IMG/VR virus record: IMGVR_UViG_3300040808_001284
Coordinates: 1-27,302 of that record
Source: a virus
DNA: 27,302 nucleotides
Strand: one strand, 5' to 3'
The translations under genes and the position numbers were made by a program. The stretch's first letter is position 1; every line of letters starts with the position of its first letter. Positions 5,224 to 27,302 of this stretch are shown piece by piece. Below the pieces are notes generated by a model, which saw only the letters and a list, made by a program, of their open reading frames with translations, searched no databases and had not been told where the DNA came from.

Positions 5224-7206
5224 ATGGCTCAGAATCAGATACTACCTTTAGGCTCCGGTTTAGGGGCAATTAGAGCGCCATCTTTGCAAGGTGACGCAAA
5301 CGAGGCGGCGTTTCGCAGAGACGCTTCTAGTGGTGGAATACTGGGTCAATTATTAAGCAAATACCCTACTCAACAACAGGCCATTGACGCTCGCAAAGCC
5401 GCTCAATCTCGCATAAGTGATATACTTGGCGGTCTTATGGGGGCTGGGTCAGCAGGCAGTGAGCCTATGTTCATGCCTGATGAGTCTTCAGGCATGAATA
5501 TTGATGGCTCAGAGCCAACACAAACACCATTCTATCTTGGTGAAGCGGCTAGAGATATAGGCGGTCAGTTTGTAAAAGATTTTCGTGGCGCTGGCCGAAT
5601 GGTTACTGATGCAGAAAGATCTATTTTGCAAGGTCTTTTTACTGGTCCAAACATCAAAACAGGCAGAGATCTTTATGGAGATGAGTTTGGAAATATAGCC
5701 CCAGACGGCACTATGCCAAGGACCATGGATTTTGATGTTACTGATGTATCTTTTGGTGATGAATTTGGAAACATAGCTCCAGACGGCAGCATGCCTAGAC
5801 AAACAACGGAAATCACCTCTGTTGCCGATGACCTTGCGGCTATGGCAGGCGCAGAATCTCGTGAGGCTGATGAACGCTCACCTATGACGCTTATGGCAGA
5901 AGCGGAAGCGCAAGAAGGTGATGAGGCTTCTAAACAAGCAATTAGGAGGGTAACGGACAGATCAAAAGATCCATTTGAAGCCGCTCTTGCCGAGGCCATG
6001 AAGTCATATGAAGATGCAAAAGCCGGTGAAGACACAGGAAGCAAAGACATAGACTATTATAAAAAGCAATTTGCAGATGCCACAGGAATAGATGTAAGTG
6101 GAAAAGTAGATAAATCTCAGGCGCTTATGGCATTTGGTCTAGCTCTTATGCAGAATAAGGCCGGTAAAGGTTTTGACGTAGGAAAAATTCTTGACTCTGT
6201 TGGTAAAGCTGGTGAAGCAGCTATGCCTGCGCTAGAAAAGGCGCAAGACAGGGCCGCCGCAGGAAAGCTTGCAGCAGGAAAATTTGCACTGCAACAACTT
6301 GATAGTGACGAGAAGAGGCAGTACGAGTCATTAATAAGGCAAGAAGAAAGAATTGCAGAACTCAAAAAAGCTTCAGCTTCAGCGGCATCAGACAGAGCGC
6401 TTGAAATTACAAAACATGCAAATGACATGGAAAAAGCTAGACTTGAAACTAGAGCAGAAGTGGAGGCTGCATCAATAAAAGCTGGAGCAGATCTCAATAA
6501 ACTTCAGTTTGATTTTTCTGGAGAAAAAGCAGTAGAGCCTTTAACTTCTAAACCAAATATAAAAATGCACATAGCAAACAGAAAATCTGATGGAAGAGAA
6601 GTTTTTACAAAGCCTTCTACAGATGTTGATTTAATCGCAAAGGGCTACGCTGACGCCCTTGATGGAACTGCGTCTATTGACAACATGATTGATCTTGTTA
6701 CAGCGGCTTCAAATGAATTTCAGGGAGGATTATCGGGGGCGCAATTGGTAACTTTCCTAGACAATAAACTGTCAGCTTTTGGTATAGAAATGAATGTTGA
6801 GTATGGAACAGGAAGAAAACTAAGTCCCGTTACAGAGTTAAGAGCTGTTAAAGATAGGCTTATAGCCCAATATAAAAGATTCTTAACGCAAGAAACTGGA
6901 AATGGAATTTCAAATACTGATGTTGAAAGGCTTGCCGCGTCTTTGGGGGAAGTTGATTTTTTCACTAACCCCCAAGAAGCTATAAAAAGGCTTCAGGAAA
7001 CAAGGTTAATATTTACATCGTCTGAAGATGCTTTAAAAAGTGCGCTTTTATCTTATACCGATAAATCAAAATATCTTGACCCCAAGGCTTATGATGAAGT
7101 GCAAGCACAAATAAATAAATCAGCATTCGGTGCGGCAGGACTAGGAAAAGGGGCCATCCCTACTTTCAAAAATAAAGACGGCGTAACAGTCATAAAATTA
7201 TCATAG
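5224..7206 (+). CDS. Large internal virion-type protein (660 aa)
   Basis: The start is preceded by AGGGG about 8 nt upstream. The N-terminal third is low in hydrophobic content, acidic and contains two copies of a 15-residue element, GDEFGNIAPDG-[TS]-MPR. The middle (about residues 330-420) is a long charged Ala/Lys/Glu helical segment (KAQDRAAAGKLAAGK, RQEERIAELKKASASA) suggesting a coiled coil. The C-terminal ~230 residues look like a folded alpha-helical domain. The size and its place between a 301-aa and a 1052-aa protein match the middle member of a T7 gp14-gp15-gp16-like set. No enzyme motif is visible. Function as a component of the ejection apparatus is inferred. Confidence 0.6.
   Translation: MAQNQILPLGSGLGAIRAPSLQGDANEAAFRRDASSGGILGQLLSKYPTQQQAIDARKAAQSRISDILGGLMGAGSAGSEPMFMPDESSGMNIDGSEPTQTPFYLGEAARDIGGQFVKDFRGAGRMVTDAERSILQGLFTGPNIKTGRDLYGDEFGNIAPDGTMPRTMDFDVTDVSFGDEFGNIAPDGSMPRQTTEITSVADDLAAMAGAESREADERSPMTLMAEAEAQEGDEASKQAIRRVTDRSKDPFEAALAEAMKSYEDAKAGEDTGSKDIDYYKKQFADATGIDVSGKVDKSQALMAFGLALMQNKAGKGFDVGKILDSVGKAGEAAMPALEKAQDRAAAGKLAAGKFALQQLDSDEKRQYESLIRQEERIAELKKASASAASDRALEITKHANDMEKARLETRAEVEAASIKAGADLNKLQFDFSGEKAVEPLTSKPNIKMHIANRKSDGREVFTKPSTDVDLIAKGYADALDGTASIDNMIDLVTAASNEFQGGLSGAQLVTFLDNKLSAFGIEMNVEYGTGRKLSPVTELRAVKDRLIAQYKRFLTQETGNGISNTDVERLAASLGEVDFFTNPQEAIKRLQETRLIFTSSEDALKSALLSYTDKSKYLDPKAYDEVQAQINKSAFGAAGLGKGAIPTFKNKDGVTVIKLS
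5677..5799 (+). repeat. Tandem 15-codon coding repeat (GDEFGNIAPDG-T/S-MPR)
   Basis: Two units at 5677-5721 and 5755-5799, 78 nt apart, encode peptides identical at 14 of 15 positions. At DNA level they differ at about six third-codon positions and in one Thr/Ser codon, so the peptide rather than the DNA has been conserved since duplication. Confidence 0.8.
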
Positions 7207-7214
7207 GTTTTTAA

Positions 7215-10200
7215 ATGGGCCAATTAATAGTAGAACTTCCTAGTGGAAATTTGCAGTTCGAGTTTGCCGGAGAACAGCCGACAGCCGAAGAGCAATTCAA
7301 AATCGCAGAAGAGATAAGAAACAGACGCCGAGCAACGGCCCCTGAACTAAGAAGAGGAAAATCATTAGAAAATCCTAATCTTGACACAGATACCGGTGTA
7401 AAAAGCGGCTCGCTTCGGGCTGTCTTGTCTATGGCAGAAAACGCTGAAGAAGAAGATGCAAAATTAACAGAATTATTCGGCATGTCTAAAGACACTGACT
7501 TTCTGCGCGACAATCGCGGAAGGCTTGCACTTACCCCAGAAGGGGGCAAAAAGCTTGGTGTTGACTTACAGAAAAACACCCTTATTGATGAAGAGGGCTT
7601 GAGTTGGTATGACCTTGCCGACTTAACAAGCATGGGTGCGGATATTGCTGGTGGTATTTACGGCACGGTAAAAGGGGCGGCGTTGGGAACGGCTACAATG
7701 GGGCCGGGGGTTGGAACCTTTGTTGGCGGCGCTCTGGGCGCTGGTACAGGTACAGCGGCTGCTGGTGCTGTTGAAGAGGCTATTGAAGGGCTTCTTGGTG
7801 TGTCCAGACAAAACGCTAGTGAGATTACAAAAGATCTTGCATTAGACTTTGGTGTTGGCGCAGCCGGTGAGGTGGTGATTGGAGGCGCAATAAAAATTGC
7901 GGCTCCGTTTGTTCGTGGCTTGCGAGGGAAAAGACTAGAAGGTGAAGAGCTTCAAACAGTGGGAATGGGGCTTGCTGACGAAAAAGCTTCCCAGCGAATA
8001 CTGATGGCTCAAGCAAAAGAAATTTCCGAGCAAACAGGTCGCCCAGTTGATGAGGTTATGACCGAGATTTCAGGCCCAACAGGCATGGGCTTTGGCGAAA
8101 CTCGCGTTGGGTTTGGAGGCATTGCGCCAACCATTGATACTGCTGGCGGCACATCTCTCGCTGCTAGAGCGCAAAGAATTGGTGAAAAAATTAGAGGCAC
8201 AAGCAAGCGCCTCATGAGCAATTTTAAAACGCTTAACGATACATTCAACACTTACAAGTCTCAGCTTGGTTTGGCCGCTGATCAGCCTATATCTCAGTCT
8301 ATTGCAGACGAGGCTGGAGATGTATTAAAGGCTGGCATTCAGGGTAAAAATCAAGCTTTAATAATTGCAGAAGAAGAAGCTAGAAGCGGCGTTTTAAATC
8401 AATTTGACGAGCTTGCGAAAGAACTAGGCGCTGCTGCAAAGTTGGATGAGGGCATTAATGACTTTGTGTTTCAGTCTTTAGCAAAATCATTAAATCAATT
8501 TGATCAGCTAGCCACATCTAAATATGCCGCCATTGATAAGGTTATGAAAGATACTGTTGGTGATTCAGCTATATTCCCCACCAGTGGTTTAAAAGAAGTA
8601 GCTACTCAGCTTAAAAAGCGTCACGGCCCTGCCATAAAAGCAAGCACTGGAATTGGAGACAAGCTTGCCGATGAAGATTTGGTTGCAAAGGGTATTATAG
8701 ATGGTTTTGAAGCCCTTGGAAACAAAGCTTCTTTTGCTCAATTATATCTTTTGCGCAAAAAACTGTGGGATACAAATTTTGCCTTTAAAGGAATGAACGG
8801 AACTAATAAGCTTGATGATGCAATAAGAATGATTGACAACATGATGACGGAGCAAGCCGTTATCAGTACCGCGCAGTCTTCAGTAAAATCTCTCGGAGAT
8901 GAGGGAGTCCAGCTATTAACTAATGCTGCAAAGGAATTGGGACCGGCTCGCAAGTTTTATCTTGATGGTATGAACAAGATTGATAGCATGACGAGAGCCA
9001 CTGGCTTGAAAGAACTTAGAGACAATGTAGTAAGAAGTAGAAATTCTGGGACACCAATCGAAGACCTAATGCCTAATGTCACATTTATGTCTAAAATTAT
9101 TAAAAACGGTGACGCTCAGTCTGTAACTAAAACATTAGACGTTATTAGAGCGAATGCCCCAAAGGGCCAAAAAGACAAACTGACCAACGAATTTAGGGAG
9201 CGACTTGCTACTGAGTGGTTAACAAACGCCGTAAAGAAAACAAGTTTTAAGGCTGATGATGCATATGCATTTAAAGGTGCAAATTTTTCTCAGCAGGTTG
9301 ACGATTTGGGTTCCACAGGAGATGTTCTGTTTGGAAAGGCTCGTTATGCAAAGATAAAAAATCTTGCAGACCAAATAAGACAGACAACTATTCCTGGCAG
9401 AACATCAACGGTTGATATAGAAAGCGCATTACTGGGCGCTAGGTCTATGGGTGCGAAAGAGCCTCTTGTTACCGCTTTGCAAAATATAGCAAAAGCGCAA
9501 AAAGAGGCAGCAGATTTTCAATCAAATAGTATTCGCAAACAGATACTTGCTAATGAAAGCATAGACCCAATGGCTGCTGCAAGAGCGGTTGTTGTGTCAA
9601 ATAAAACTAATGAAATAAAATCAGTAATGGATTCATTAGATGATGCTGGTAGAGAAAAAGTAAGACAATTTTACTTATCTCAGTTGACTCAAGATTTTGG
9701 TGTAGATGCTCTTGTTGATGGAAAGGCTCTGAAAGGCATGTCCAATGCCTTTACAGCAGCCGCTGAAAAAGGAAAATTGCGAGCTGTTTTTGGTAAGCAG
9801 ACCGGAATTGATATGGAAAAGTTTGCAAAAATTTTGGCGGCAAACGCTAAAACTGCTCAAGGCGGTGATCTTGTTGCTGCTAATATTGCAGCAAGCCCGT
9901 TAGAAAACTTAGGAAAAATTATTCGATTCAGTGTTGTTGGTCGTTTATTAGATTCTGCCCCAATATATGGGCGAGTTGTAAAGGACTATGAGCGCATGTC
10001 AAAAGGACTAAGCCCTAAAGCAAAGTCAGAGCTTTTAGGGCAGTTGATTGGCGCTGCTGTAGCACAAACTCCAGGACAGGTAACTCAAGAAGTTGCAAAT
10101 GAAGGCATAAAGCAGGTGCAGGCATTAGCACAAGGCACAGGTCTTGATCAGCAACTGTCGCAGATACAAAGTCGCATGAACCCACCCGTGTCTGCATCAG

Positions 10201-11527: not shown

Positions 11528-11651
11528 CGTTTCCTATTTTTAGCTTACACACCTCACAGACAGCAGGCTCTTTGTCATAGTCTACTGCTGTACGACAGCG
11601 AGGGCATTGCCCCGTGTCTATAAGCTTTTGTATAGGCCCCTTTTCCTTCAT
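11502..11651 (-). CDS. Small zinc-ribbon protein on the minus strand (49 aa)
   Basis: A short minus-strand ORF whose ATG overlaps the stop of the upstream minus-strand gene (ATGA), a translational coupling arrangement. It reads CPRC near residue 16 and CEVC near residue 32, the two knuckles of a zinc ribbon. Its last 26 nt overlap the convergent nuclease gene on the + strand. It is absent if only long ORFs are considered. A function in DNA or protein binding together with its partner is plausible but not shown. Confidence 0.7.
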   Translation of the reverse strand: MKEKGPIQKLIDTGQCPRCRTAVDYDKEPAVCEVCKLKIGNATDFPDKK

Positions 11652-11827
11652 GCTGCTGACCCAATGCCGGACCTCACTTCATCTGCGTACCGGTCTTGAT
11701 ATGCGTCATAGACAAGCTTTGCAATTTGCTGGCTAACCTTTCGGTGTTCATCAGTAGAAAGCTTAACGAGTTTTTTGTGTGTGTTAATGTCTACAGCAAC
11801 TGACTTGTATTGCTTTGGATCGGCCAT
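11648..11827 (-). CDS. Ribbon-helix-helix-like small DNA-binding protein (59 aa)
   Basis: The start ATG at 11827 is preceded on the minus strand by GGGAGC about 8 nt upstream; an in-frame upstream start at 11851 is less well supported. The segment YKSVAVDINTHKKLVKLS followed by helical KVSQQIAKLVYDAY has the layout of a ribbon-helix-helix (Arc/MetJ-type) regulator: a basic beta strand then two short helices. It is transcribed divergently from the replication module 42 bp away, the place expected for an autoregulator or switch protein. It forms a two-gene operon with the zinc-ribbon gene. The family call is from pattern only. Confidence 0.6.
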   Translation of the reverse strand: MADPKQYKSVAVDINTHKKLVKLSTDEHRKVSQQIAKLVYDAYQDRYADEVRSGIGSAA

Positions 11828-11869
11828 TATAATGCTCCCATAAGTTAACAACAGTGGGCATATATTAGC

Positions 11870-12223
11870 ATGTTTAAGGGTTATCGCAAGTATAATAAAT
11901 ATGGCGCAAAGAAGACACAGTTTATGGGGTTCACATTCGACTCCAGATGGGAGGCGGAGCGTTGGGGGCAGTTAACCGCTATGGAACGCGCCGGGGCTAT
12001 ACGAGATTTAGAGAGACAAATAAAGTATGACATAGTTGTAAACGGTGAAAAGATTTGTAGGTATATTGCAGACTTCAAATACAAAGAAGTTGAGGAAGAC
12101 GGCTCCACAAAAGAAATTGTTGAAGATGCAAAGGGTGTGGAAACCGCTGATTTTAAACTAAAAAAGAAGCTAATGAAAGCCGTACACGGTATTGAGATAA
12201 AATTATCTAAGAAAAATAGTTGA
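11870..12223 (+). CDS. DUF1064-like phage endonuclease
   Basis: The 117-aa protein follows the DUF1064 pattern closely: KYNKYGAKKT at residues 7-16, FDSRWEAERW at 23-32, then the conserved AGAIRDLERQ-type segment, YIADFKYKE, and VEDAKGVET with KLKKKLM. These proteins are common in phages and carry a PD-(D/E)XK-like nuclease core (Glu28/Glu30, Asp in ADF, Glu-Asp-Ala-Lys). They are thought to process branched DNA or recombination intermediates. No Shine-Dalgarno precedes the ATG, and a TATATT at 11861-11866 sits only 4 nt upstream, so a leaderless transcript is possible. It is the first gene of the rightward replication block. Confidence 0.8.
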   Translation: MFKGYRKYNKYGAKKTQFMGFTFDSRWEAERWGQLTAMERAGAIRDLERQIKYDIVVNGEKICRYIADFKYKEVEEDGSTKEIVEDAKGVETADFKLKKKLMKAVHGIEIKLSKKNS

Positions 12224-20594: not shown

Positions 20595-20939
20595 ATGGCG
20601 AAGGGCAACCGAAGAGAGGTTCAGCAAAGGTCACGGGCTAAACTACGAGGCCAAGCTAGGGATGCTTTAGGCGGGTGTTGCAAAAATTGCGGGTTTGATG
20701 ATCACAGGGTTTTAGAATTTGACCATATAGTGCCGGTGCTGTGGCGCACCAACGAATTAAAAAGAATGAATGGGCAACACAATACTAACGAAATAAATAG
20801 AATGTTAAGAAATGGGGAGGATCCGCGCACGGTGTACCAACTTTTATGTGCTAATTGCCATAGAATAAAAACACTGGAAAATCGAGCGCATGAAATACAT
20901 TATAAACCAAAGAAGGAGAAGGGGCATGAGTTACTTTGA
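20595..20939 (+). CDS. HNH endonuclease (114 aa)
   Basis: The ATG at 20595 has CAGGAAG about 7 nt upstream. The protein contains CCKNCGF, VLEFDHIVPVLW and LLCANCHRIKT: the two zinc-binding CxxC pairs and the HNH/beta-beta-alpha core (Asp-His in DHI, the second His in CHRIKT). The N-terminal region is basic and would bind DNA. Phage HNH proteins of this length are nicking or homing-type endonucleases, or assist terminase cleavage. Its 3' end overlaps the next gene's start by 14 nt. Confidence 0.88.
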   Translation: MAKGNRREVQQRSRAKLRGQARDALGGCCKNCGFDDHRVLEFDHIVPVLWRTNELKRMNGQHNTNEINRMLRNGEDPRTVYQLLCANCHRIKTLENRAHEIHYKPKKEKGHELL

Positions 20940-21408
20940 AAAAGCAATAAATTATACAAAACGTGATGAAGAGATTTATCATCAGCGCGAAGTGGAAGGA
21001 CGCACACTAAAATCTATTGGAGATGAATACGGTTTATCGTCTGAGAGGATCCGGGGCATTGCGGCAATAGTGTATAGAATGAAATTGCTGGAAAAAGAAA
21101 AGGGATCACGGTGGTCAAATCCTAAAATAATGAATGATATCAGGTGGACTAATGTTCGTGTTATAAATTGCCTTTACAACGAAAACGCTATGGAGTTGCC
21201 TATTGAAGAGTTTATAGAAACCTACAATTTTTATAAGCTAATGCGTATTCCAAATTTTGGCAAAAAGGCCATGCAAGAAGTTTGTGAAAAATTGGAAGAA
21301 CATGGATACAAAGACATTGACCATTTTCGATCAGCTAAAGCTTGCAATCGGCGAGCCTATGAAAAAAATGCGGCAATTGAAGCAGTTAAAAAAGTTATGA
21401 CGCTATAA
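20926..21408 (+). CDS. Transcription factor-like fusion: sigma region 4-type HTH plus RNA polymerase alpha-CTD-like domain
   Basis: The ATG at 20926 is preceded by AGAAGGAG at 7 nt. Residues ~20-50 (GRTLKSIGDEYGLSSERIRGI) match the sigma70 region 4.2 helix-turn-helix, keeping the ERIR core (Glu40, Arg43) that contacts -35 DNA. Residues ~76-128 match the alpha-subunit C-terminal domain: RVINCL corresponds to the R265/N268/C269 stretch (here Arg78, Asn81, Cys82) and IPNFGKKAMQEV to G296/K298/E302 (here Gly112, Lys114, Glu118); Ser299 is replaced by Ala115. The ~160-aa protein therefore combines two promoter-reading modules. It could recruit or redirect host RNA polymerase. Alignment is by eye. 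A strong terminator and an operator-bearing promoter follow immediately. Confidence 0.75.
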   Translation: MSYFEKAINYTKRDEEIYHQREVEGRTLKSIGDEYGLSSERIRGIAAIVYRMKLLEKEKGSRWSNPKIMNDIRWTNVRVINCLYNENAMELPIEEFIETYNFYKLMRIPNFGKKAMQEVCEKLEEHGYKDIDHFRSAKACNRRAYEKNAAIEAVKKVMTL

Positions 21409-21436
21409 CGCTATAACGTCACGGTGTACTGGAAGG

Positions 21437-21462
21437 GGGGTGTTGTACACCCCTCTTTTTCT
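21437..21462 (+). terminator. Rho-independent terminator
   Basis: GGGGTGT (21437-21443) pairs perfectly with ACACCCC (21447-21453) around a 3-nt loop and is followed by a T-rich tract (TCTTTTTCTT). It ends the operon of the HNH and sigma4/alpha-CTD genes, a few bases before a new promoter. Confidence 0.85.
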
Positions 21463-21464
21463 TG

Positions 21465-21493
21465 TTGACATACTGTGCAATAATTGCTATATT
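21465..21493 (+). promoter_or_regulatory. Sigma70 promoter with spacer palindrome GCAATAATTGC
   Basis: TTGACA (21465-21470) and TATATT (21488-21493) are 17 nt apart, near-consensus. The palindrome GCAATAATTGC (21477-21487) fills the part of the spacer touching the -10. A leader GCTTAACAAAGGAGG (21502-21516) follows, identical to that of the promoter at 26373. It drives the gene at 21522. Confidence 0.85.
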
Positions 21494-21521
21494 AAGTTAT
21501 TGCTTAACAAAGGAGGTCAGT

Positions 21522-21755
21522 ATGACTGTCAAAAATTTCTATCAAAACCTTGCGGAATACTGGGATGCACCGAATGACAATCATATGCAGGAATTTCAGC
21601 CAGAAGCTGATTGCATGGATGAGGTCGTTGCTGGTGTAAGTAAGGCGTGGGCAGCAGTTGATGCCTATTGCAAGGCTAAAGGCATGTCACAGGATGACAT
21701 GGAAGATTTTGCCGATGAGTTAATTGGTAAAGTATTAAGAGAAGGAGAGTTTTAA
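21522..21755 (+). CDS. Hypothetical acidic protein, 77 aa, first gene of the 21465 promoter
   Basis: The start is supported by AAGGAGG and follows the promoter within 30 nt. The protein is acidic and mainly helical (DEVVAGVSKAWAAVDAYCKAKG, DDMEDFADELIGKVL). No family is recognised and there is no membrane segment. The stop overlaps the next ATG (TAATG). Early expression from a strong, operator-bearing promoter suggests an early host-interaction role, which is inference from context only. Confidence 0.7.
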   Translation: MTVKNFYQNLAEYWDAPNDNHMQEFQPEADCMDEVVAGVSKAWAAVDAYCKAKGMSQDDMEDFADELIGKVLREGEF

Positions 21756-21949
21756 TGTACGAGGTACGCATTACAAAAAGTATTGAACGAGGAATGTTCA
21801 ATGTGGATTTAGTTGCATGGGAGCGCAATGGAAGTGGCGTTGCTCATGGAAAGGCATTCAAGGTCAACAGAAAGGCAGCGGACAAAGAGGCCGCTAGGGT
21901 TGCTGATCTTTATAAGGCAGAAATTGTCGATAAGACGAAGGGAGAGTAA
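21755..21949 (+). CDS. Hypothetical basic protein, 64 aa
   Basis: Coupled to the upstream gene by TAATG. It begins with a beta-rich segment, YEVRITKSIERGMFNVDLVAWER, and ends in an Ala/Lys-rich helix (KAADKEAARVADLYKAEI). This simple beta-beta-alpha layout is common in small phage proteins. No family is recognised, and no motifs or cysteines are visible. It is probably co-transcribed from 21465 with its neighbours. Confidence 0.6.
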   Translation: MYEVRITKSIERGMFNVDLVAWERNGSGVAHGKAFKVNRKAADKEAARVADLYKAEIVDKTKGE

Positions 21950-21950
21950 A

Positions 21951-22361
21951 ATGTTGTACTTTGCTTATGGATCAAATCTTGATGTGTTTCAGATGCAGCA
22001 CCGATGCCCAAAGGCAGAGCCGTTAGGTGCGGCTTACTTCCCGAATTGGAAGTTAGTGTTCCGTCACGTTGCCGATATCGAGCCGGAAGATGGTGCGATG
22101 CTGCCAGTTGGTATCTGGGATGTGACAGATGATTGCTTGAAAGCTTTAGATCGTTACGAGGGTGTAAAGCATGGTTTGTACCGCAGGGTATTTATCAATG
22201 GTCTTTTGACGTACCGCATGAATAATACCGACATTGCGCCGCCAGCCAAAGGCTACTTTGACACGATCATGAGGGGCTACAAAGATTTCGATCTTGACGA
22301 AACCTATTTGTGGGGGGCGGCTCTTGATGCCCAAAACCACATGACTGAAAAAACTGCTTGA
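21951..22361 (+). CDS. Gamma-glutamylcyclotransferase-like (GGCT/AIG2 fold) protein
   Basis: The 136-residue protein begins with FAYGSNLD, the phosphate/substrate-loop signature of the GGCT fold, and contains ALDRYEGV with the conserved catalytic Glu position. It ends after a FDLDETYLWGAAL segment. Such enzymes convert gamma-glutamyl amines or peptides to 5-oxoproline; in phages the substrate is unknown. The start at 21951 follows a GGGAGAG ribosome-binding site. It lies in the operon from 21465. The second operator-bearing promoter begins inside the last codons of this gene. Confidence 0.8.
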   Translation: MLYFAYGSNLDVFQMQHRCPKAEPLGAAYFPNWKLVFRHVADIEPEDGAMLPVGIWDVTDDCLKALDRYEGVKHGLYRRVFINGLLTYRMNNTDIAPPAKGYFDTIMRGYKDFDLDETYLWGAALDAQNHMTEKTA

Positions 22362-22386
22362 CAATGATTGCAATCATTGCTTGAGT
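22358..22386 (+). promoter_or_regulatory. Promoter with spacer palindrome GCAATCATTGC (weak -10)
   Basis: TTGACA (22358-22363) overlaps the end of the GGCT-like gene. After 17 nt lies TTGAGT (22381-22386), a poor -10. GCAATCATTGC (22370-22380) is a perfect inverted repeat at the same phase (7 nt after -35) as at 21465 and 26373. Because of its weak -10 it may need an activator, which could bind the palindrome. Confidence 0.65.
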
Positions 22387-22421
22387 ATATGTGTCTTAAC
22401 AAACAAAACGAGGTAACAACG

Positions 22422-22622
22422 ATGTTTGAGTTAATTGATCCAGCGTATCCAGATGCCGCAAGTGACGAGCGTCTGGTTCCGATCTTGTCTGAAATTATGA
22501 AGTTGCAGACCGAGATCCAAAGCGCACAGTGGGAAGGCCGCGATGCTACAGCGTTGTCGCAGCGGCTGCGGTCTTTAAACAAGTCTTACATGGATGGAGC
22601 GGTTTATGAGCCACAGTTCTGA
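22422..22622 (+). CDS. Hypothetical 66-aa protein
   Basis: The ATG at 22422 is preceded by CGAGGTAACAAC, a Shine-Dalgarno-like site, and follows the 22358 promoter. It reads ELIDPAYPDAASDERL and then a helix, VPILSEIMKLQTEIQSAQ, with SQRLRSLNKSYMDG near the end. It looks like a small helical protein of unknown function with no motif. Its last 17 nt overlap the next gene's start. Confidence 0.6.
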   Translation: MFELIDPAYPDAASDERLVPILSEIMKLQTEIQSAQWEGRDATALSQRLRSLNKSYMDGAVYEPQF

Positions 22623-22800
22623 AAAATGGTGCCGCGTTTGGTGGCGTGACGGTCAATGCGGTGAAATGTTCAAAGAAAATAAATTAGGTGAGATGGCCTT
22701 GCGTTATGGCTTTGATCCATATGATTTTGTCGCTAATGAACAAGTTGATTTAACAGACGGAGACGGCGATATCGTGGGGGGTGTGATCTATGACTGTTAA
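22606..22800 (+). CDS. Hypothetical 64-aa protein
   Basis: The ATG at 22606 lies within the upstream gene and has GGAG 7 nt before it. The sequence WCRVWWRDGQCGEMFKENK followed by GEMALRYGFDPYDFV is Trp-rich and acidic at the C-terminus (DLTDGDGDIVGG). No family is recognised. Its stop overlaps the protease start, suggesting coupled expression of the two. Confidence 0.55.
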   Translation: MSHSSEKWCRVWWRDGQCGEMFKENKLGEMALRYGFDPYDFVANEQVDLTDGDGDIVGGVIYDC

Positions 22801-23164
22801 ACGTATTGATATGGCGCTTCATGTGCAGCAGCTATGCGCTGAGAATAATATCACGGTAACATACCAGTCTATGCATGACGATGTTCCGCGTTACTACGCA
22901 CAGCCAGCTAGGCGGTTGATCTGCATTAGGCCAACAAAAAATACAGGGTACTATGTTAGTGCGCTGCATGAGTTGGGGCATATTCTTGGCGATAAACAAA
23001 AAAACGACAATACAGTGCTTGAAAGAGAGTTGTATGCGTGGATTTGGGCTAGACAAAAGGCTCTTGTATGGACTGAAACAGCGGAGCGCATTATGCGCCG
23101 TGCTATGGATAGTTACGGCTGGAAAGCGCACCAAAAGCAAGTGTGGGAAAGGACGTTTGTGTGA
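22790..23164 (+). CDS. ImmA/IrrE-like zinc metalloprotease (124 aa)
   Basis: The protein contains [12 protein letters not shown], the HEXXH zinc site, and about 20 residues later [10 protein letters not shown], an acidic segment matching the third zinc-ligand region of ImmA/IrrE (COG2856) proteases. Family members cleave repressors or regulators such as ImmR/DdrO, and several occur in phages. Here there is no N-terminal HTH domain, so it is the minimal protease only. The substrate is unknown; a host or phage repressor is a natural guess. It starts inside the preceding gene and its TGA overlaps the next ATG. Confidence 0.8.
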
Positions 23165-24030
23165 TGCAGGTAATTACGAGAAAAGAGGCTATCGCGCAGG
23201 GGTTGAGCCGGTATTTTACCGGCTTGCCTTGCAGTAAGGGAGGGGTTGGATACCGCAGGGTTACAACAAGAACGTGCCTTTGTGATTTATGTTCTGAAAT
23301 TAGGAACAAAAACGCAAATTTGCGCAGAAATTTAGAAAGAAAAAATAGACACCCAATGCACTGTGAGGCTCAAAGATTTATTGGTAATTGTAAAAGCAAA
23401 TCTGGCGTTGATGTCTCTTTTGATGAAGCAATTAACCATTTAAAATCTAGGCAACAAGCAGAAAAAATGGGGCAAATTCATTTCCACTCTAAAGTCCCAT
23501 GCAAAAGGGGACATATTTGTAAAAGGTACACAAAATCAGGTTCTTGTTACGAGTGCGAAAAGTCAAAAGGCAAGCGCATGGCTCAAAAGCACAAAGACAA
23601 AAGAAAAAAATATATGGAATCTTGGCGTCCAGCCAACAAAGATACAGTAAGAAAAAATTGGTCTGACTATTACGCAAAGAACGGAAAGGAAATAAGGAGG
23701 GTATGCCGCGAATGCCCTAAAAAACGCGCCATGGCAGCCGAAGCAAGGATGCGGAGAATAGCTAGGGTTAAGAAAGCCACGCTATCTCAACTAAAACCTA
23801 GTGATTTTAAGCACATTTACTTAGCTAGAGAAATCATGTCCATTGAACATGGGGTTGATTACGAGGTTGACCACTATTATCCCCTTCGTGGCAAAACTAT
23901 TTGCGGCCTTCATGTACCGTGGAATTTGCAAGTCATTACGGCAGAAGAAAACAGAATGAAACTAAACAAAATGCCGGAGGATTTCTATGGCGAAGATTGT
24001 ACACCACCAACATGGGAGGTCGCCGCATGA
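23164..24030 (+). CDS. HNH-type endonuclease with two zinc-finger-like modules
   Basis: The 288-residue, strongly basic protein starts at 23164 (TGATG overlap). It has two copies of a cysteine module: [15 protein letters not shown] with CLCDLC (about residues 18-45) and [14 protein letters not shown] with CYEC (about 110-140), each of the form PC-x-x-G...R...C-x-x-C. The C-terminal part has [25 protein letters not shown] and a terminal Asn-rich/basic helix with ENRMKLNK, the HNH core of homing-type nucleases (Asp-His, His and Asn positions). It would bind and nick or cut DNA and may spread by homing. Similar phage HNH genes are mobile. Confidence 0.8.
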
Positions 24031-24236
24031 GTAAGAATGGCAGCCCGATGGATCGCGGGGCGGCAGACAGATACTATGGTCGCTCTTATGATCCGCATTG
24101 GTACCCAGATGGCACATATAATGGGGAAAGGGTCGAGTTAAAAGACATGACACCAGATGAAATTGTGTCTTACACTAAAGGCTACAAAGAAGAGGATAGC
24201 CGCAAAGATTGGGGCGAAGGAGTTAAAAATGTCTGA
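24027..24236 (+). CDS. Conserved small phage protein (69 aa, AADRYYGR type)
   Basis: The ATG at 24027 has GGGAGGT 6 nt upstream, inside the previous gene. The sequence [20 protein letters not shown] with [15 protein letters not shown] and KDWGEG matches a short conserved phage protein family that I recognise by its RGAAD-x-YYGR and PHWYP positions; its function is unknown. No catalytic motif is obvious. Four-base overlap with the HNH gene implies translation coupling. Confidence 0.7.
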
Positions 24237-24525
24237 GCAAAATAGAATGTATTGGGGTCTAAAAGAGTTGCGGTTCCTGATGGATGAGGATGTTGCTCTT
24301 GATCGGATCAAGGAAAAGGTCGATGCGTTGATGAATGTATCGCTTGGCTGTCAGTGCAGCGAGCGGTATAACTATGTTGTTGACCAGCAGAAACGGGTTG
24401 TAGAGGTGGACGGGAGCGAAATTGTTCGGCTTACTACAGCAGATGTAAAGTGCCACTGGAACGTGGATCTTCACATGAGGCCCGGAACAAGTGAAATTGT
24501 TCGTATTGAAGCAAGGAGGGTATAG
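24229..24525 (+). CDS. Hypothetical 98-aa protein with two SEIVR segments
   Basis: GAAGGAG lies 7 nt before the ATG at 24229. The N-terminal 30 residues form a helix (LKELRFLMDEDVALDRIKEK), and the rest is beta-rich with LGCQCSERYNYVV. Two short repeats, GSEIVRLTT and TSEIVRIEA, both encode AATTGTTCG in the same codon phase. No family is recognised. The stop overlaps the next GTG start (TAGTG). Confidence 0.6.
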   Translation: MSEQNRMYWGLKELRFLMDEDVALDRIKEKVDALMNVSLGCQCSERYNYVVDQQKRVVEVDGSEIVRLTTADVKCHWNVDLHMRPGTSEIVRIEARRV

Positions 24526-24731
24526 TGGGAGTTCCGTCAAGAGAAGATATTATTGCGGCGTTGCGTCTGCCGGAAGTCGCGCCAGCAAAGCATAGGGTTC
24601 ATGTTAGAACAGATGTTATAACACCAGCGCAAAAGTCGGTGAAAGATCGGCTTAAAAGGTCTTGGGCTGCTAGCCTAGAAGATCAGTTGCGTAGGAAGGC
24701 TGGTGTGAAAAGGTCAAAATGGGATGGCTGA
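24525..24731 (+). CDS. Small basic protein, 68 aa, GTG start
   Basis: The GTG at 24525 is supported by AAGGAGGGTATA (6 nt spacing) and overlaps the preceding stop. Basic and helical, it reads VPSREDIIAALRLPEVAPAK, then AQKSVKDRLKRSWAA and ends in RRKAGVKRSKW, consistent with nucleic-acid binding. It is the last gene before the iteron-rich non-coding region. Function is unknown; binding the adjacent repeats is conceivable but untested. Confidence 0.6.
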   Translation: MGVPSREDIIAALRLPEVAPAKHRVHVRTDVITPAQKSVKDRLKRSWAASLEDQLRRKAGVKRSKWDG

Positions 24732-25017
24732 TCATGTGGTAAATAAATACCACATTAACCATAATTCGGTTAACTTTTACTTACCTACTTACCTAGTTAC
24801 CTATAGGTAAGTAAAACGTAGGTAAGTAATAAGTTACTGAATATATTAACGAAATCGGTTTACTTACCTGCCCCGATTTCTTCTGTAGGTAAGTTAAGAG
24901 TTGGGTGTAAGTCATTGAAAAGGCCTATGGTTACAAAGTTTCCTATGGTTACATATATATATATATGGGTAGGTAGTGTAACCTACCCCATATACGAAAG
25001 TTAGAAAGACGCGCAAC
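24732..25017 (+). repeat. Iteron- and inverted-repeat-rich non-coding region (candidate origin or terminase site)
   Basis: No gene is visible in 286 nt. ACTTACCT is present in three tandem copies (24779-24802, third copy AGTTACCT), and its complement AGGTAAGT occurs at 24805, 24820 and 24887; a further ACTTACCT is at 24862. Inverted repeats: ATGTGGTA/TACCACAT (24734-24755), TTAACC/GGTTAA (24755-24773), GAAATCGG/CCGATTTC with an iteron in the loop (24851-24880) and GGGTAGGT/ACCTACCC (24967-24988). CCTATGGTTACA is directly repeated 18 bp apart (24924 and 24942), followed by an (AT)n tract. Such density fits a replication origin or packaging/terminase recognition site next to the small terminase gene. 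Confidence 0.75.
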
Positions 25018-25323
25018 ATGCAACAAAACGGACTGAGTTCTTGCTCGATATGCAGCAAGCTTCATGATGCAGGAAATCTGATTGAGTTGAACGGCAACGC
25101 TATCTGCTTTCCGTGTTCAATGTATGTGCAGTGGGAAGATATTGATGAGGTGCGCAGGCCAAGTGATTACGATGACGCTTTGGATCAGCAGCACGAAAAT
25201 AAAATCATTTCACTTATGCTAGAATTTGCGGGGCTTCAAGAAACAGCGTCAGGGGTGATATACTACCCAGACGAACACCACGATAATGTTTACCATTTAG
25301 TGGGAACGAATAGAGAGGATTGA
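25018..25323 (+). CDS. Zinc-finger-like protein, 101 aa
   Basis: The ATG at 25018 follows the iteron region; the upstream ribosome-binding site is weak. Residues ~9-36 have CSICSKLHDAG and AICFPC, two CxxC pairs consistent with a zinc ribbon or LIM-like knuckle. The rest is acidic and helical (DYDDALDQQHENKIISLMLEF) with a final HHDNVYHL. No precise family is named. It is immediately upstream of the small terminase gene, so it may belong to packaging or to early control. Confidence 0.6.
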   Translation: MQQNGLSSCSICSKLHDAGNLIELNGNAICFPCSMYVQWEDIDEVRRPSDYDDALDQQHENKIISLMLEFAGLQETASGVIYYPDEHHDNVYHLVGTNRED

Positions 25324-25325
25324 AT

Positions 25326-25865
25326 ATGCCAAAGGTCGGAGAAGATTTGCCAAAAGAAATGCGCCTTGCGGGATACAAAAGGCTCAAGCCAATACAGCAG
25401 GAGTTCTTAAACAATTACTTGCATAAAGACATGACACAGACAGCAGCAGCGAGAGAGGCGGGATATAAGAATGCCTCCGTGTCCGCTGTACGGCTGCTAA
25501 AAAACCCAGTGGTGGCAGAACGCCTGCAAGAGATGCGCCTAGAGACACAGGCCAAATTTGGCGTAACAATCGACAAGTCTATTCGGGATTTAAAAAAGCT
25601 TCGGGATCAAGCGTGGGAGAACGGGCGATTTAGCGAAGCTATTCGTGCTGAAGAGCTGCGTTTGAAGGCAGCAGGGCTACTTATCAACAAGCAGCACGTT
25701 GTCAAGGAGGATATTACAGCACAAACAAAAGAACAAATTGCCGATAAATTGGCTGAATTCAAGCGTTTGGCTGAGTCGCGCATGGTAAACGTAACACCAG
25801 ATGTAGACGTTATCGAGCATGAACCACAAAATATAGTGGATGATACAGAGGATGCGGTAGAATAG
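25326..25865 (+). CDS. Terminase small subunit (TerS-like)
   Basis: The ATG at 25326 follows GAGAGGA by about 6 nt. The 179-aa protein has the small-terminase pattern LKPIQQEFLNNYLHKDMTQTAAAREAGY followed by VRLLKNPVVAERLQEM, the HTH DNA-binding region of Terminase_2-type subunits. The middle is a charged coiled-coil-prone helix and the C-terminus is acidic. It would recognise the packaging site and load the large subunit, which is not in this window. The iteron region 300 bp upstream is an obvious candidate target. Identification is by motif, without a search. Confidence 0.85.
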   Translation: MPKVGEDLPKEMRLAGYKRLKPIQQEFLNNYLHKDMTQTAAAREAGYKNASVSAVRLLKNPVVAERLQEMRLETQAKFGVTIDKSIRDLKKLRDQAWENGRFSEAIRAEELRLKAAGLLINKQHVVKEDITAQTKEQIADKLAEFKRLAESRMVNVTPDVDVIEHEPQNIVDDTEDAVE

Positions 25866-26077
25866 TACCACACACCCCGTGCGGGGGGAGGAGGCGGTCT
25901 TCGGGGCCTGCTCGGGGCCTTGTAGGCGTAGATTTGTTCGGGTTCGGGGCCTGAATCGGGCCTTTTCGGGGCCTCGGGCTAGGGTTTCTGAGGGTTTGCG
26001 GGCGCTCTTCTCCGATGACAAACGGGGCCTGCTCTGGATCGGGCCTCGGGAACCGTATAATTGTTCGGGATCGGGCC

Positions 26078-26143
26078 GGGAATCAGCAGCTCGTACGGGA
26101 AAACGTACGCATAGACACTAGTGGCAATGTAGGCATCGGGACG
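26078..26143 (+). pseudogene. Tail-fibre coding fragment (RIDTSGNVGIGT)
   Basis: The + frame from 26078 encodes 22 residues ending RIDTSGNVGIGT, a motif characteristic of phage tail fibre and S74-containing proteins. It lies in GC-rich non-coding DNA with no flanking fibre domain. It is best read as a relic or a captured recombination segment rather than a functional gene. Confidence 0.6.
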
Positions 26144-26148
26144 GGACA

Positions 26149-26160
26149 GAACAATTGTTC
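26149..26160. repeat. Perfect palindrome GAACAATTGTTC (copy 1)
   Basis: Twelve-base perfect inverted repeat, followed by G to form AATTGTTCG (26153-26161). GAAC-N4-GTTC geometry resembles known repressor sites, but no regulator is identified. Confidence 0.8.
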
Positions 26161-26219
26161 GGAATCGGGGGTTGACCCCGGGCCTGAATCGGGACATCAT
26201 TGAGTCCTCCCTTGGTCTG

Positions 26220-26256
26220 CCCCTGGTACAGTCTCCTCCGTGCCAGGGGCTTTCTC
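26220..26256 (+). terminator. Strong hairpin, possible terminator of the terminase transcript
   Basis: CCCCTGGTAC (26220-26229) pairs with GTGCCAGGGG (26240-26249), ten pairs with one G-U, around a 10-nt loop. Only CTTTCTC follows, a weak T-tract, so terminator function is uncertain. Confidence 0.5.
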
Positions 26257-26274
26257 GTCCCCGGGCCTGAATAC

Positions 26275-26286
26275 GAACAATTGTTC
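26275..26286. repeat. Perfect palindrome GAACAATTGTTC (copy 2)
   Basis: A second perfect copy, 126 bp after the first, preceded by CG to give CGAACAATT. It follows CCCCGGGCCTGAAT (26259-26272). A similar arrangement recurs at 27234-27261. Confidence 0.8.
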
Positions 26287-26309
26287 TGCTTGCCCCCGGC
26301 CCGCAGTGC

Positions 26310-26339
26310 AGCAACGGCAATGTAGGTATTGGGACAACA
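26310..26339 (+). pseudogene. Second tail-fibre coding fragment (SNGNVGIGTT)
   Basis: In a different frame from the first, the DNA encodes SNGNVGIGTT. The 20 bases shared with 26123-26142 differ at two positions, both third codon positions in GNVGIGT. The remains of two fibre sequences, or a diverged duplication, lie in non-coding DNA. Confidence 0.55.
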
Positions 26340-26372
26340 AAATCTTTTTTTTATTTTTTGTTGTTTTTCTTG

Positions 26373-26402
26373 TTGACACTATCTGCAATAGTTGCTTATA
26401 TA
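26373..26402 (+). promoter_or_regulatory. Sigma70-like promoter with spacer palindrome (GCAATAGTTGC)
   Basis: TTGACA (26373-26378), then TTATAT (26396-26401) after 17 nt. GCAATAGTTGC (26385-26395), one mismatch from a perfect inverted repeat, begins 7 nt after the -35, as at 21465 and 22358. The leader GCTTAACAAAGGAGG (26410-26424) is identical to that at 21502. It drives the gene at 26430. Confidence 0.8.
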
Positions 26403-26429
26403 TGGGTGTGCTTAACAAAGGAGGACGAA

Positions 26430-26594
26430 ATGAACCCTTTATTTTTTTCTGGCGAACTGCCAATGGATCACGGACCTTGCCTTAATCACGAGGCAAGAAG
26501 TTTAGCTGATTACTGGGTTGAGATTGGTGAGGTTTTAAATTGGGATCATGCATATGAAAGTGCATGGGAGTGCATTGAAGGGAGAGCGAAATGA
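26430..26594 (+). CDS. Hypothetical 54-aa protein, first gene of the 26373 promoter
   Basis: The ATG at 26430 has AAGGAGG 6 nt upstream. The sequence FFSGELPMDHGPCLNHEARSLADYWV continues helical and acidic (GEVLNWDHAYESAWECIEG). No family is recognised. Its stop overlaps the next ATG (ATGA). It is likely expressed early with the following three small genes. Confidence 0.65.
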   Translation: MNPLFFSGELPMDHGPCLNHEARSLADYWVEIGEVLNWDHAYESAWECIEGRAK

Positions 26595-26815
26595 AAACAC
26601 CACAAGTAAAGCCTGATTGGAAAACTGGCATCTATATTGGTAACGGTGTAGTCGCCGTACCTACAGCAGACCAGAAGGTACAAGCGGTAGTAGACGCAAT
26701 TAACTGTGTAATGGAGGGAATTGGCGTAGACGAGGGCGATAATCAGGAAGCTATGTTGCACGAGTTAGCATGGCAGTTGGTAAATGTGACGAGGGGAGAA
26801 AAAAATGAAAACTAA
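26591..26815 (+). CDS. Hypothetical 74-aa protein
   Basis: Coupled to the gene before it (ATGA). Central segment GIYIGNGVVAVPTADQKVQ followed by a helix AVVDAINCVMEGIGVD suggests a small alpha/beta fold; the C-terminus is acidic. No family is recognised. Its 3' end overlaps the next gene by 11 nt. Confidence 0.6.
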   Translation: MKTPQVKPDWKTGIYIGNGVVAVPTADQKVQAVVDAINCVMEGIGVDEGDNQEAMLHELAWQLVNVTRGEKNEN

Positions 26816-26993
26816 AACATATGATGTGCAAATCGAGGCCATTGTCACCAAGACAATTCGCGTCAATGCGATTGATGAGGATGCTGCCTATGAACTGGCG
26901 CATGAATTTTTCGTTGTTGCTAATGACGGAAATGAAGAGCGTTACGAGCAGAATGAAAAAAACATCTGGGAAGTGGAGGAAGGAAATGCGTAA
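26805..26993 (+). CDS. Hypothetical 62-aa protein (possibly DpnD/PcfM-like)
   Basis: The sequence starts with YDVQIEAIVTKTIRVNAIDEDAAYELA, which has the beta-strand then helix layout of the small DpnD/PcfM-like C-terminal family; the match is weak and only by pattern. The C-terminal half is acidic. The ribosome-binding site GAGGGG lies ~8 nt upstream. Function is unknown. Confidence 0.5.
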   Translation: MKTKTYDVQIEAIVTKTIRVNAIDEDAAYELAHEFFVVANDGNEERYEQNEKNIWEVEEGNA

Positions 26994-27156
26994 GCTAGGT
27001 AACACATTAATCGGGATCGGGTTCATTGGGCTGTGCTTTGCATCGGCTGTGGAGCCAGACCCAGCAGTAACGGGATCATTCTTCGTTCACGCGGGCATCA
27101 TTATGATCTTCGCGCTAACGATGGTAACGGGAGTCGTCACTGCTCGGGCTTCATAA
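26986..27156 (+). CDS. Small membrane protein, 56 aa
   Basis: The ATG at 26986 follows GGAGGAAGGAA and overlaps the previous stop. Two hydrophobic segments are visible: NTLIGIGFIGLCFASAV (about residues 6-22) and FVHAGIIMIFALTMVTGVV (about 33-51), separated by a short polar/acidic loop (EPDPAVTGS). A hairpin membrane protein of this size could be a holin, but no holin signature or lysis neighbour supports this; an early-expressed membrane effector is equally possible. Confidence 0.65.
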   Translation: MRKLGNTLIGIGFIGLCFASAVEPDPAVTGSFFVHAGIIMIFALTMVTGVVTARAS

Positions 27157-27233: not shown

Positions 27234-27302
27234 CCCCGGGCCTGAACAGTACAATTGTTCGTAATTGGCCCGGATTCAGCTCGTAAATCTTTTTTATTTT
27301 TT
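27234..27302 (+). repeat. Start of a second repetitive cassette at the window edge
   Basis: CCCCGGGCCTGAA, then ACAATTGTTCG (27251-27261), then GGCCCGG and AAATCTTTTTTATTTTTT. The order parallels 26259-26360. CCGGGCC/GGCCCGG forms a stem enclosing GAACA/TGTTC. The window ends in the T-rich part. Confidence 0.6.

What the first reader, a model, noticed from the sequence alone, without database searches (positions are those of the whole stretch)
21465..26401. Three promoters share a GCAATNATTGC palindrome at one fixed phase
At 21465, 22358 and 26373, TTGACA is followed after exactly 6 nt (palindrome starting at the 7th) by GCAATAATTGC, GCAATCATTGC or GCAATAGTTGC, ending directly before the -10 region. 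Two also share the 15-nt leader GCTTAACAAAGGAGG at the same distance from the -10. This is the geometry of a repressor (or, at the weak-10 promoter, activator) regulon controlling small early genes. The promoter at 12220 lacks it.
Basis: partly seen in the sequence, partly recalled or inferred. Interest (0 to 1): 0.75.

Follow-up and report, generated by a model that had tools for sequence, protein, structure and literature searches.

The report
Phage repressor regulon with spacer operators
Three promoters of an uncultured marine phage carry the same small DNA palindrome between their two core elements, and comparison with over a hundred related phage contigs indicates it is the docking site of a phage-encoded repressor whose gene lies just beyond the end of this contig and which also controls itself.

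Summary
In detail: TTGACA-N6-GCAATNRTTGC occurs exactly three times in the window (0 of 100 shuffles reach 3). The same promoters, 1-5 per contig, fill a lineage of uncultured marine phages. In a set fetched without using the motif, 89 sites were found against 4 for the reversed-pattern control. The spacing is not strictly fixed: -35 and -10 stay about 17 bp apart while the dyad sits 6, 5 or 4 bp after TTGACA. Evidence: all 31 TerL-selected relatives with at least 4 kb upstream have it; its own operon promoter carries the dyad; the dyad sequence changes with its recognition helix (96:0 versus 0:10); and a close relative with a different Xre keeps the promoter skeleton but has a different dyad. 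Four sequenced phages sharing TerL lack both. Mechanism: autoregulated repression by blocking RNA polymerase, as in Aca and Cro proteins. New member of a known kind; no wet-lab test exists.

The parts
21465..21493 (+). Promoter 1: -35 TTGACA 21465-21470, operator dyad GCAATAATTGC 21477-21487, -10 TATATT 21488-21493; directly follows a GC-rich hairpin with T-run (about 21435-21460)
   Evidence: orthologous promoter in the closest relative at L151 1143
21502..21516 (+). Shared leader GCTTAACAAAGGAGG with ribosome-binding site, before ATG 21522
   Evidence: the same leader recurs in relatives
21522..22361 (+). Operon under promoter 1: 77-aa protein, 64-aa protein, GGCT/AIG2-like protein (21951-22361)
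22358..22386 (+). Promoter 2: -35 22358-22363, dyad GCAATCATTGC 22370-22380 plus overlapping near-dyad ACAATGATTGC 22361-22371, weak -10 TTGAGT 22381-22386
   Evidence: orthologue at L151 2036
22422..24030 (+). Genes after promoter 2 (66 aa, 64-68 aa, 124 aa, 288-295 aa), function unknown
26373..26402 (+). Promoter 3: -35 26373-26378, dyad GCAATAGTTGC 26385-26395, -10 TTATAT/TATATA 26396-26402
   Evidence: orthologue at L151 5803
26410..26424 (+). Shared leader GCTTAACAAAGGAGG before ATG 26430
26430..27156 (+). Small genes after promoter 3 (54, 74, 62 aa and a short membrane-like protein)
27288..27302 (+). T-rich stretch ending the contig; in the closest relative (L151) the matching position 6583 lies 14 bp before a fourth dyad promoter (6597), and the Xre operon promoter (9003) and Xre gene (9295-9687) follow

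Best explanation
The palindrome is the operator of a phage-encoded Xre-family (lambda-repressor-like HTH) protein of about 120-135 aa, made from a two-gene operon (an ~80-aa protein, then Xre) between the amidoligase and terminase large-subunit genes. The operator lies between the -35 and -10 elements of strong host-sigma70-type promoters, so a bound dimer should exclude RNA polymerase. The phage would first express several small-gene operons with host polymerase; as Xre accumulates it shuts them off and, through a dyad in its own promoter that is often imperfect, limits itself. Shown here: the sites, their conservation, the Xre gene, the dyad in its promoter, and co-variation of operator with recognition helix. 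Inferred: DNA binding, the direction (repression), the timing, and that the window's own phage encodes this Xre, since its contig ends first.
For: Conservation: 40 of 46 related records hold TTGAC-N7-GCAATNNTTGC (up to 2 mismatches), with 2 control hits in all (most of these records were chosen by the motif). Xre-selected, motif-independent set (80 loci, 731 kb): 89 sites versus 4 control; GYAAYNRTTRC 372 versus 12 hits; TTGACA at offsets -12/-11/-10 = 54/14/2. Co-occurrence: 31/31 TerL-selected contigs with at least 4 kb upstream have Xre, with 47 dyad promoters versus 0 control there; four sequenced phages sharing TerL (HTVC027P, HTVC023P, 023Pt_psg01, DSL-LC04) lack both over their whole genomes. 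Autoregulation: a dyad about 282 bp before the Xre start in many loci, also L099, and relaxed forms GCAATCTTTGC, GCAACTATTGC, GCATTCATTGC. Specificity: Xre with S[HPK]RMYCYYE: 96 GYAAYnRTTRC sites, 0 GAAAYnnRTTTC; with SYRMYCYYE: 0 and 10. Swap: L300 (SERGYRCYE) is TerL sister of SHRMWNHYE phages; promoters matching over their flanks differ in the dyad, TTGACATGTTGCAATCATTACATTATATTAGTATTAATTAAA (L307) versus TTGACATGGAGGAACTCAATGCTTATATTAGTATTAATTAAA (L300). Fold: HTH domain like HigA2, Aca10, Aca2.
Against: No binding, footprint or expression data. The window itself lacks the Xre gene. The operator/helix association is not corrected for phylogeny; the 10 GAAA-type sites come from few lineages, mostly one orthologous promoter. 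Some Xre loci with the common helix show no exact dyad in the stretch held, e.g. L249, L258, L213, L264. The weak -10 at 22381 could mean activation there. For a few divergent Xres (SARMYRYYE, SYRQYMYYE) the dyad in the spacer is imperfect.
Confidence: 0.78

Rival explanations
1. The same Xre protein binds the dyad but activates, or does both: represses promoters with good -10 elements and activates the one with a weak -10 (22358).
For: The 22358 promoter and its orthologues keep a weak -10 (TTGAGT or TTAGGT) with a perfect dyad; two overlapping dyads there.
Against: The dyad occupies the spacer, where Aca-type proteins repress (PMC9410906); most sites sit in near-consensus promoters that need no activator.
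Confidence: 0.1
2. Another phage regulator, most plausibly the conserved RHH-like protein (window 11651-11830, minus strand), binds the dyad.
For: RHH is conserved across the lineage (12 of 46 records, 9 of 22), 98-100% identical in several contigs.
Against: No dyad at its own promoter; present in phages without the GCAAT-type dyad and more similar to the window's there (49-53%) than in type-A phages G047-G049 (33-42%); operator sequence follows the Xre helix.
Confidence: 0.05
3. A host regulator uses the dyad and phages sharing that host converged on it.
For: The promoters are host-sigma70 type and many of the phages are marine (inference).
Against: A scan of 84,980 species genomes for the promoter-dyad-TAT pattern gave 8 scattered hits, none in a marine alphaproteobacterium by title; two precede Xre-type genes of Tenericutes and Clostridium. 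The dyad changes with the phage Xre.
Confidence: 0.03
4. The dyad is only a promoter element (extended -10 TGC plus a fortuitous left arm), with no dedicated binding protein.
For: The right arm TTGC supplies the TG of an extended -10 when the dyad abuts the -10.
Against: The left arm is strongly conserved too; the dyad slides 0-2 bp relative to -35/-10, so TG is then out of register; both arms change together in other subfamilies (GAAATnnATTTC, GTAATnnATTAC).
Confidence: 0.03

Closest known systems
Anti-CRISPR-associated repressors Aca2, Aca1, Aca10 (acr-aca operons)
   Same: Xre-type HTH with a C-terminal extension; second gene of a short phage operon after a small protein; inverted repeat inside the core promoter; autoregulation (PMC8434428, PMC9410906). 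HTH domain matches Aca10 Z 9.7, Aca2 Z 9.0; Aca2 sequence E 4.7e-4.
   Different: Here several dispersed promoters (five in G007) appear to be controlled, not one operon; no known anti-CRISPR gene identified; no DUF1870 match; operator is a short 5-1-5 or 5-2-5 dyad.
Cro/CI-type phage repressors (lambda, P22 C2, 434)
   Same: HTH fold (P22 C2, 434); operator in promoters; divergent promoter pairs with dyads on both sides occur in some relatives (L041, L046).
   Different: No paired second repressor, integrase or lysogeny module was seen; operators are scattered over the small-gene region rather than grouped in one switch.
Mycobacteriophage L5-type stoperators (from general knowledge)
   Same: One repressor with many short dispersed sites in a phage genome.
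   Different: Stoperators lie largely between genes and block elongation; these sites sit in promoter spacers.
Toxin-antitoxin autoregulators HigA2, MqsA
   Same: HTH domain fold (HigA2 Z 10.1, MqsA Z 8.0) and, from general knowledge, autorepression.
   Different: NCBIfam MqsA model far below its cut-off (21.5 versus 61.8 bits); no toxin partner recognised.
HTVC023P-type pelagiphages (HTVC023P, HTVC027P) and phage 023Pt_psg01
   Same: TerL 55-60% identical.
   Different: Lack both Xre and dyad.

Membership tests
Xre/lambda-repressor-like HTH regulators | Helical HTH domain of the lambda-repressor type | tested here: met
   AlphaFold2 model pLDDT 84, helices 14-23, 28-35, 39-47, 54-66; HTH matches with Z up to 10 over about 60 residues. 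Pfam HTH_3/HTH_19 mostly below the gathering score, HTH_3 just above for L099.
Xre/lambda-repressor-like HTH regulators | Binds an inverted repeat as a dimer | not testable with these tools
   Only inferred from the dyads and their co-variation with the recognition helix.
Aca (anti-CRISPR-associated) proteins | Inverted repeat inside the core promoter of its own operon | tested here: met
   Dyad in the spacer of the Xre operon promoter in many loci.
Aca (anti-CRISPR-associated) proteins | Gene follows a known anti-CRISPR gene | tested here: inconclusive
   A conserved ~80-aa gene overlaps or abuts the Xre start in 98 of 110 loci but matches no Pfam, PHROG, NCBIfam or PADLOC family and no PDB fold; no anti-CRISPR library was on hand.
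Aca2 family (DUF1870) | Sequence match to the family | tested here: not met
   No DUF1870 hit in Pfam; only weak similarity to Aca2 chains, E 4.7e-4.
RstR and MqsA families (NCBIfam) | Score above curated cut-off | tested here: not met
   NF041951 at most 26 versus 80 bits; TIGR03830 at most 23 versus 61.8 bits.
MerR-type spacer activators | Dyad in an overlong 19-20 bp spacer | tested here: not met
   Spacers are about 17 bp.
Temperate phage immunity repressors | Lysogeny module (integrase etc.) | tested here: inconclusive
   None recognised among the proteins scanned, but contigs are partial and not all genes were scanned.

The most novel reading that the evidence does not exclude
These phages form immunity-like groups without lysogeny: the Xre repressor of the phage already in the cell would shut the small-gene promoters of any incoming phage with the same operator, so repressor and operator sets are repeatedly replaced together. 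The L300 versus L303/L307 pair (near-sister TerL, different Xre and different operators in matching promoters) would be one such switch.
Probability: 0.12. Interest if true: 0.65.

Novelty: new member of a known kind. Interest (0 to 1): 0.5.

Why it matters
It gives a regulatory circuit and a named regulator to a large group of uncultured marine phages whose gene control is unknown, and it supplies a natural series of repressor-operator pairs (at least four distinct dyads paired with distinct recognition helices) that could be used to read the specificity code of a small HTH protein. The small genes under these promoters, including the one coupled to Xre, become candidates for takeover or counter-defence functions, by analogy with acr-aca operons.

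Tried and rejected
(1) Sigma4/alpha-CTD fusion as dedicated promoter factor: in only 5 of 46 related records. (2) wHTH 14216: no match in long type-A contigs G047 and G048. (3) RHH: conserved but does not follow operator type. (4) Host promoter class: only scattered genome hits. (5) Close phages in GenBank: megablast of the window found none; tblastn of the fusion and of Xre found none. (6) A planned Xre-minus control among TerL-selected IMG/VR contigs was impossible because all 31 had Xre; four GenBank phages served instead. (7) The trees did not separate 'operator follows Xre' from shared descent in general; only the L300/L316 versus SHRMWNHYE contrast is informative. (8) PDB fold search of the coupled small protein: nothing significant. 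(9) Library search for a described precedent found general phage repressor papers only.

Full report
Observation. The window is a 27,302-bp linear IMG/VR virus contig. The pattern TTGACA-N6-GCAATNNTTGC occurs three times, all as described, and nowhere else even with two mismatches; shuffles give 0.15 on average and never three. Promoters 1 and 3 share the leader GCTTAACAAAGGAGG at the same distance. Promoter 2 has a weak -10 and two overlapping dyads. The promoter at 12220 has none.

Relatives. Most of these contigs share a terminase small subunit, a gamma-glutamyl-cyclotransferase-like gene and an amidoligase, and many a primase. Their large terminase is 55-62% identical to pelagiphages HTVC023P and HTVC027P, phage 023Pt_psg01 and phage DSL-LC04. 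With two mismatches allowed, 40 of 46 related records hold such promoters, against two control hits; most of these records were picked by the motif, so the motif-independent sets below carry the weight.

The regulator. Clustering of proteins pointed to an Xre-type HTH gene in 15 of the 18 genome sets compared, always between the amidoligase and TerL genes where both are seen. The window ends before that place: it is 87-97% identical to contig G007 in matching blocks and stops where G007 has, 14 bp on, a fourth dyad promoter at 6597, then a fifth at 9003 in front of the Xre operon and Xre at 9295-9687. Fetching 80 loci by Xre alone gave 89 dyad promoters against 4 for the reversed pattern, and 372 palindromes against 12. 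An unbiased offset scan put TTGACA at -12 (54), -11 (14) and -10 (2) from the dyad; with relaxed -35 the same three offsets dominate. The -35/-10 distance stays about 17 bp, so the dyad is an element of its own that may shift by up to two base pairs.

Autoregulation. In many loci the dyad lies about 282 bp before the Xre start, in the promoter of a two-gene operon whose first gene encodes ~80 aa and overlaps or abuts the Xre start (98 of 110 loci). In other subfamilies the operon promoter carries a relaxed dyad such as GCAATCTTTGC, GCAACTATTGC or GCATTCATTGC, which would suit a weaker self-repression (inference).

Specificity. TerL-selected contigs with enough upstream sequence all carry Xre (31 of 31), but the GCAAT-type dyad is present mainly with close Xre forms. 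Divergent Xre forms have other dyads in the same spacer position: GAAATACATTTC, GTAATATATTAC, GGCACTGATGCC and a GMAAYATAYTGC type. Counting sites in promoter context, Xre with S[HPK]RMYCYYE in the recognition helix (54 loci, 569 kb) has 96 GYAAYnRTTRC and no GAAAYnnRTTTC; with SYRMYCYYE (11 loci, 95 kb) it has 0 and 10 (Fisher 3e-14, not corrected for descent; the ten are mostly the Xre operon promoter itself). The contrast between L300/L316 and the SHRMWNHYE phages is more telling: they are sisters in the TerL tree, L300 shares about 85% DNA identity with them around TerL, yet the Xre helices differ, and promoters whose flanks align have GCAATCATTAC in one and GGAACTCAATGCT in the other.

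Controls and rivals. The four GenBank relatives have neither Xre nor dyad over their whole genomes. The fusion and wHTH candidates are too sparse. The RHH protein is widespread but its similarity does not follow operator type, and its own promoter lacks the dyad. No sign of a host promoter class was found in a scan of 84,980 species genomes; two of the eight hits there precede Xre-type genes of Tenericutes and Clostridium, which shows that this sort of dyad suits Xre proteins.

Mechanism and comparison. The model of Xre (pLDDT 84) has an HTH domain like HigA2, Aca10, Aca2 and MqsA. Published Aca proteins bind inverted repeats within the core promoter, repress, and in most cases lose repression when the repeat is scrambled (PMC9410906, PMC8434428). 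By this analogy the Xre protein most likely represses by excluding RNA polymerase. Repression itself, timing, and the host are not shown. The kind of mechanism is known; the multi-promoter phage regulon, the lineage and the set of co-varying repressor-operator pairs are new to the material searched.

Noticed in passing
window 20926-21405 (+): A 160-aa protein joining a sigma-70 region 4-like HTH to an RNA polymerase alpha C-terminal-like domain (Pfam RNA_pol_A_CTD 5e-6, Sigma70_r4 4e-5); found in 5 of 46 related records. Unusual combination, function unknown.
   Followed up: partly
window 11651-11830 (-): Small RHH-like gene on the strand opposite to its neighbours, 98-100% identical in several contigs and recognisable across the whole lineage; possibly a second conserved regulator with an unknown target.
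   Followed up: partly
L162 7766-8008 and orthologues (98 of 110 Xre loci): Conserved ~80-aa protein whose gene overlaps or abuts the Xre start; confident AlphaFold model (pLDDT 91), no known family or fold. Candidate antirepressor or counter-defence protein.
   Followed up: partly
window 26151, 26277, 27251 and 11026: Second palindrome ACAATTGT, often as (G)AACAATTGTTC, near GC-rich repeats (CGGGCCTGAATCGGGCC) between operons; also seen between genes of relatives.
   Followed up: no
window 24778-24870: Cluster of direct and inverted GGTAAGTA/TACTTACC repeats in a non-coding stretch.
   Followed up: no
L124 6039 (-) and L128 3409 (+): Tenericutes and Clostridium MAG promoters with TTGACA-N6-GCAATTATTGC directly before Xre-type genes: independent use of a similar operator.
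   Followed up: no
L041 5714-/5760+, L046 121-/177+, L067 6234-/6281+: Divergent promoter pairs about 50 bp apart, each with its own dyad; in several the outward transcript has no obvious gene.
   Followed up: no
relatives, e.g. L153 12187-12612 and 17787-18944: A gamma-glutamyl-cyclotransferase-like gene and an amidoligase with a winged-HTH-like tail (DUF3489) recur together across the lineage.
   Followed up: no
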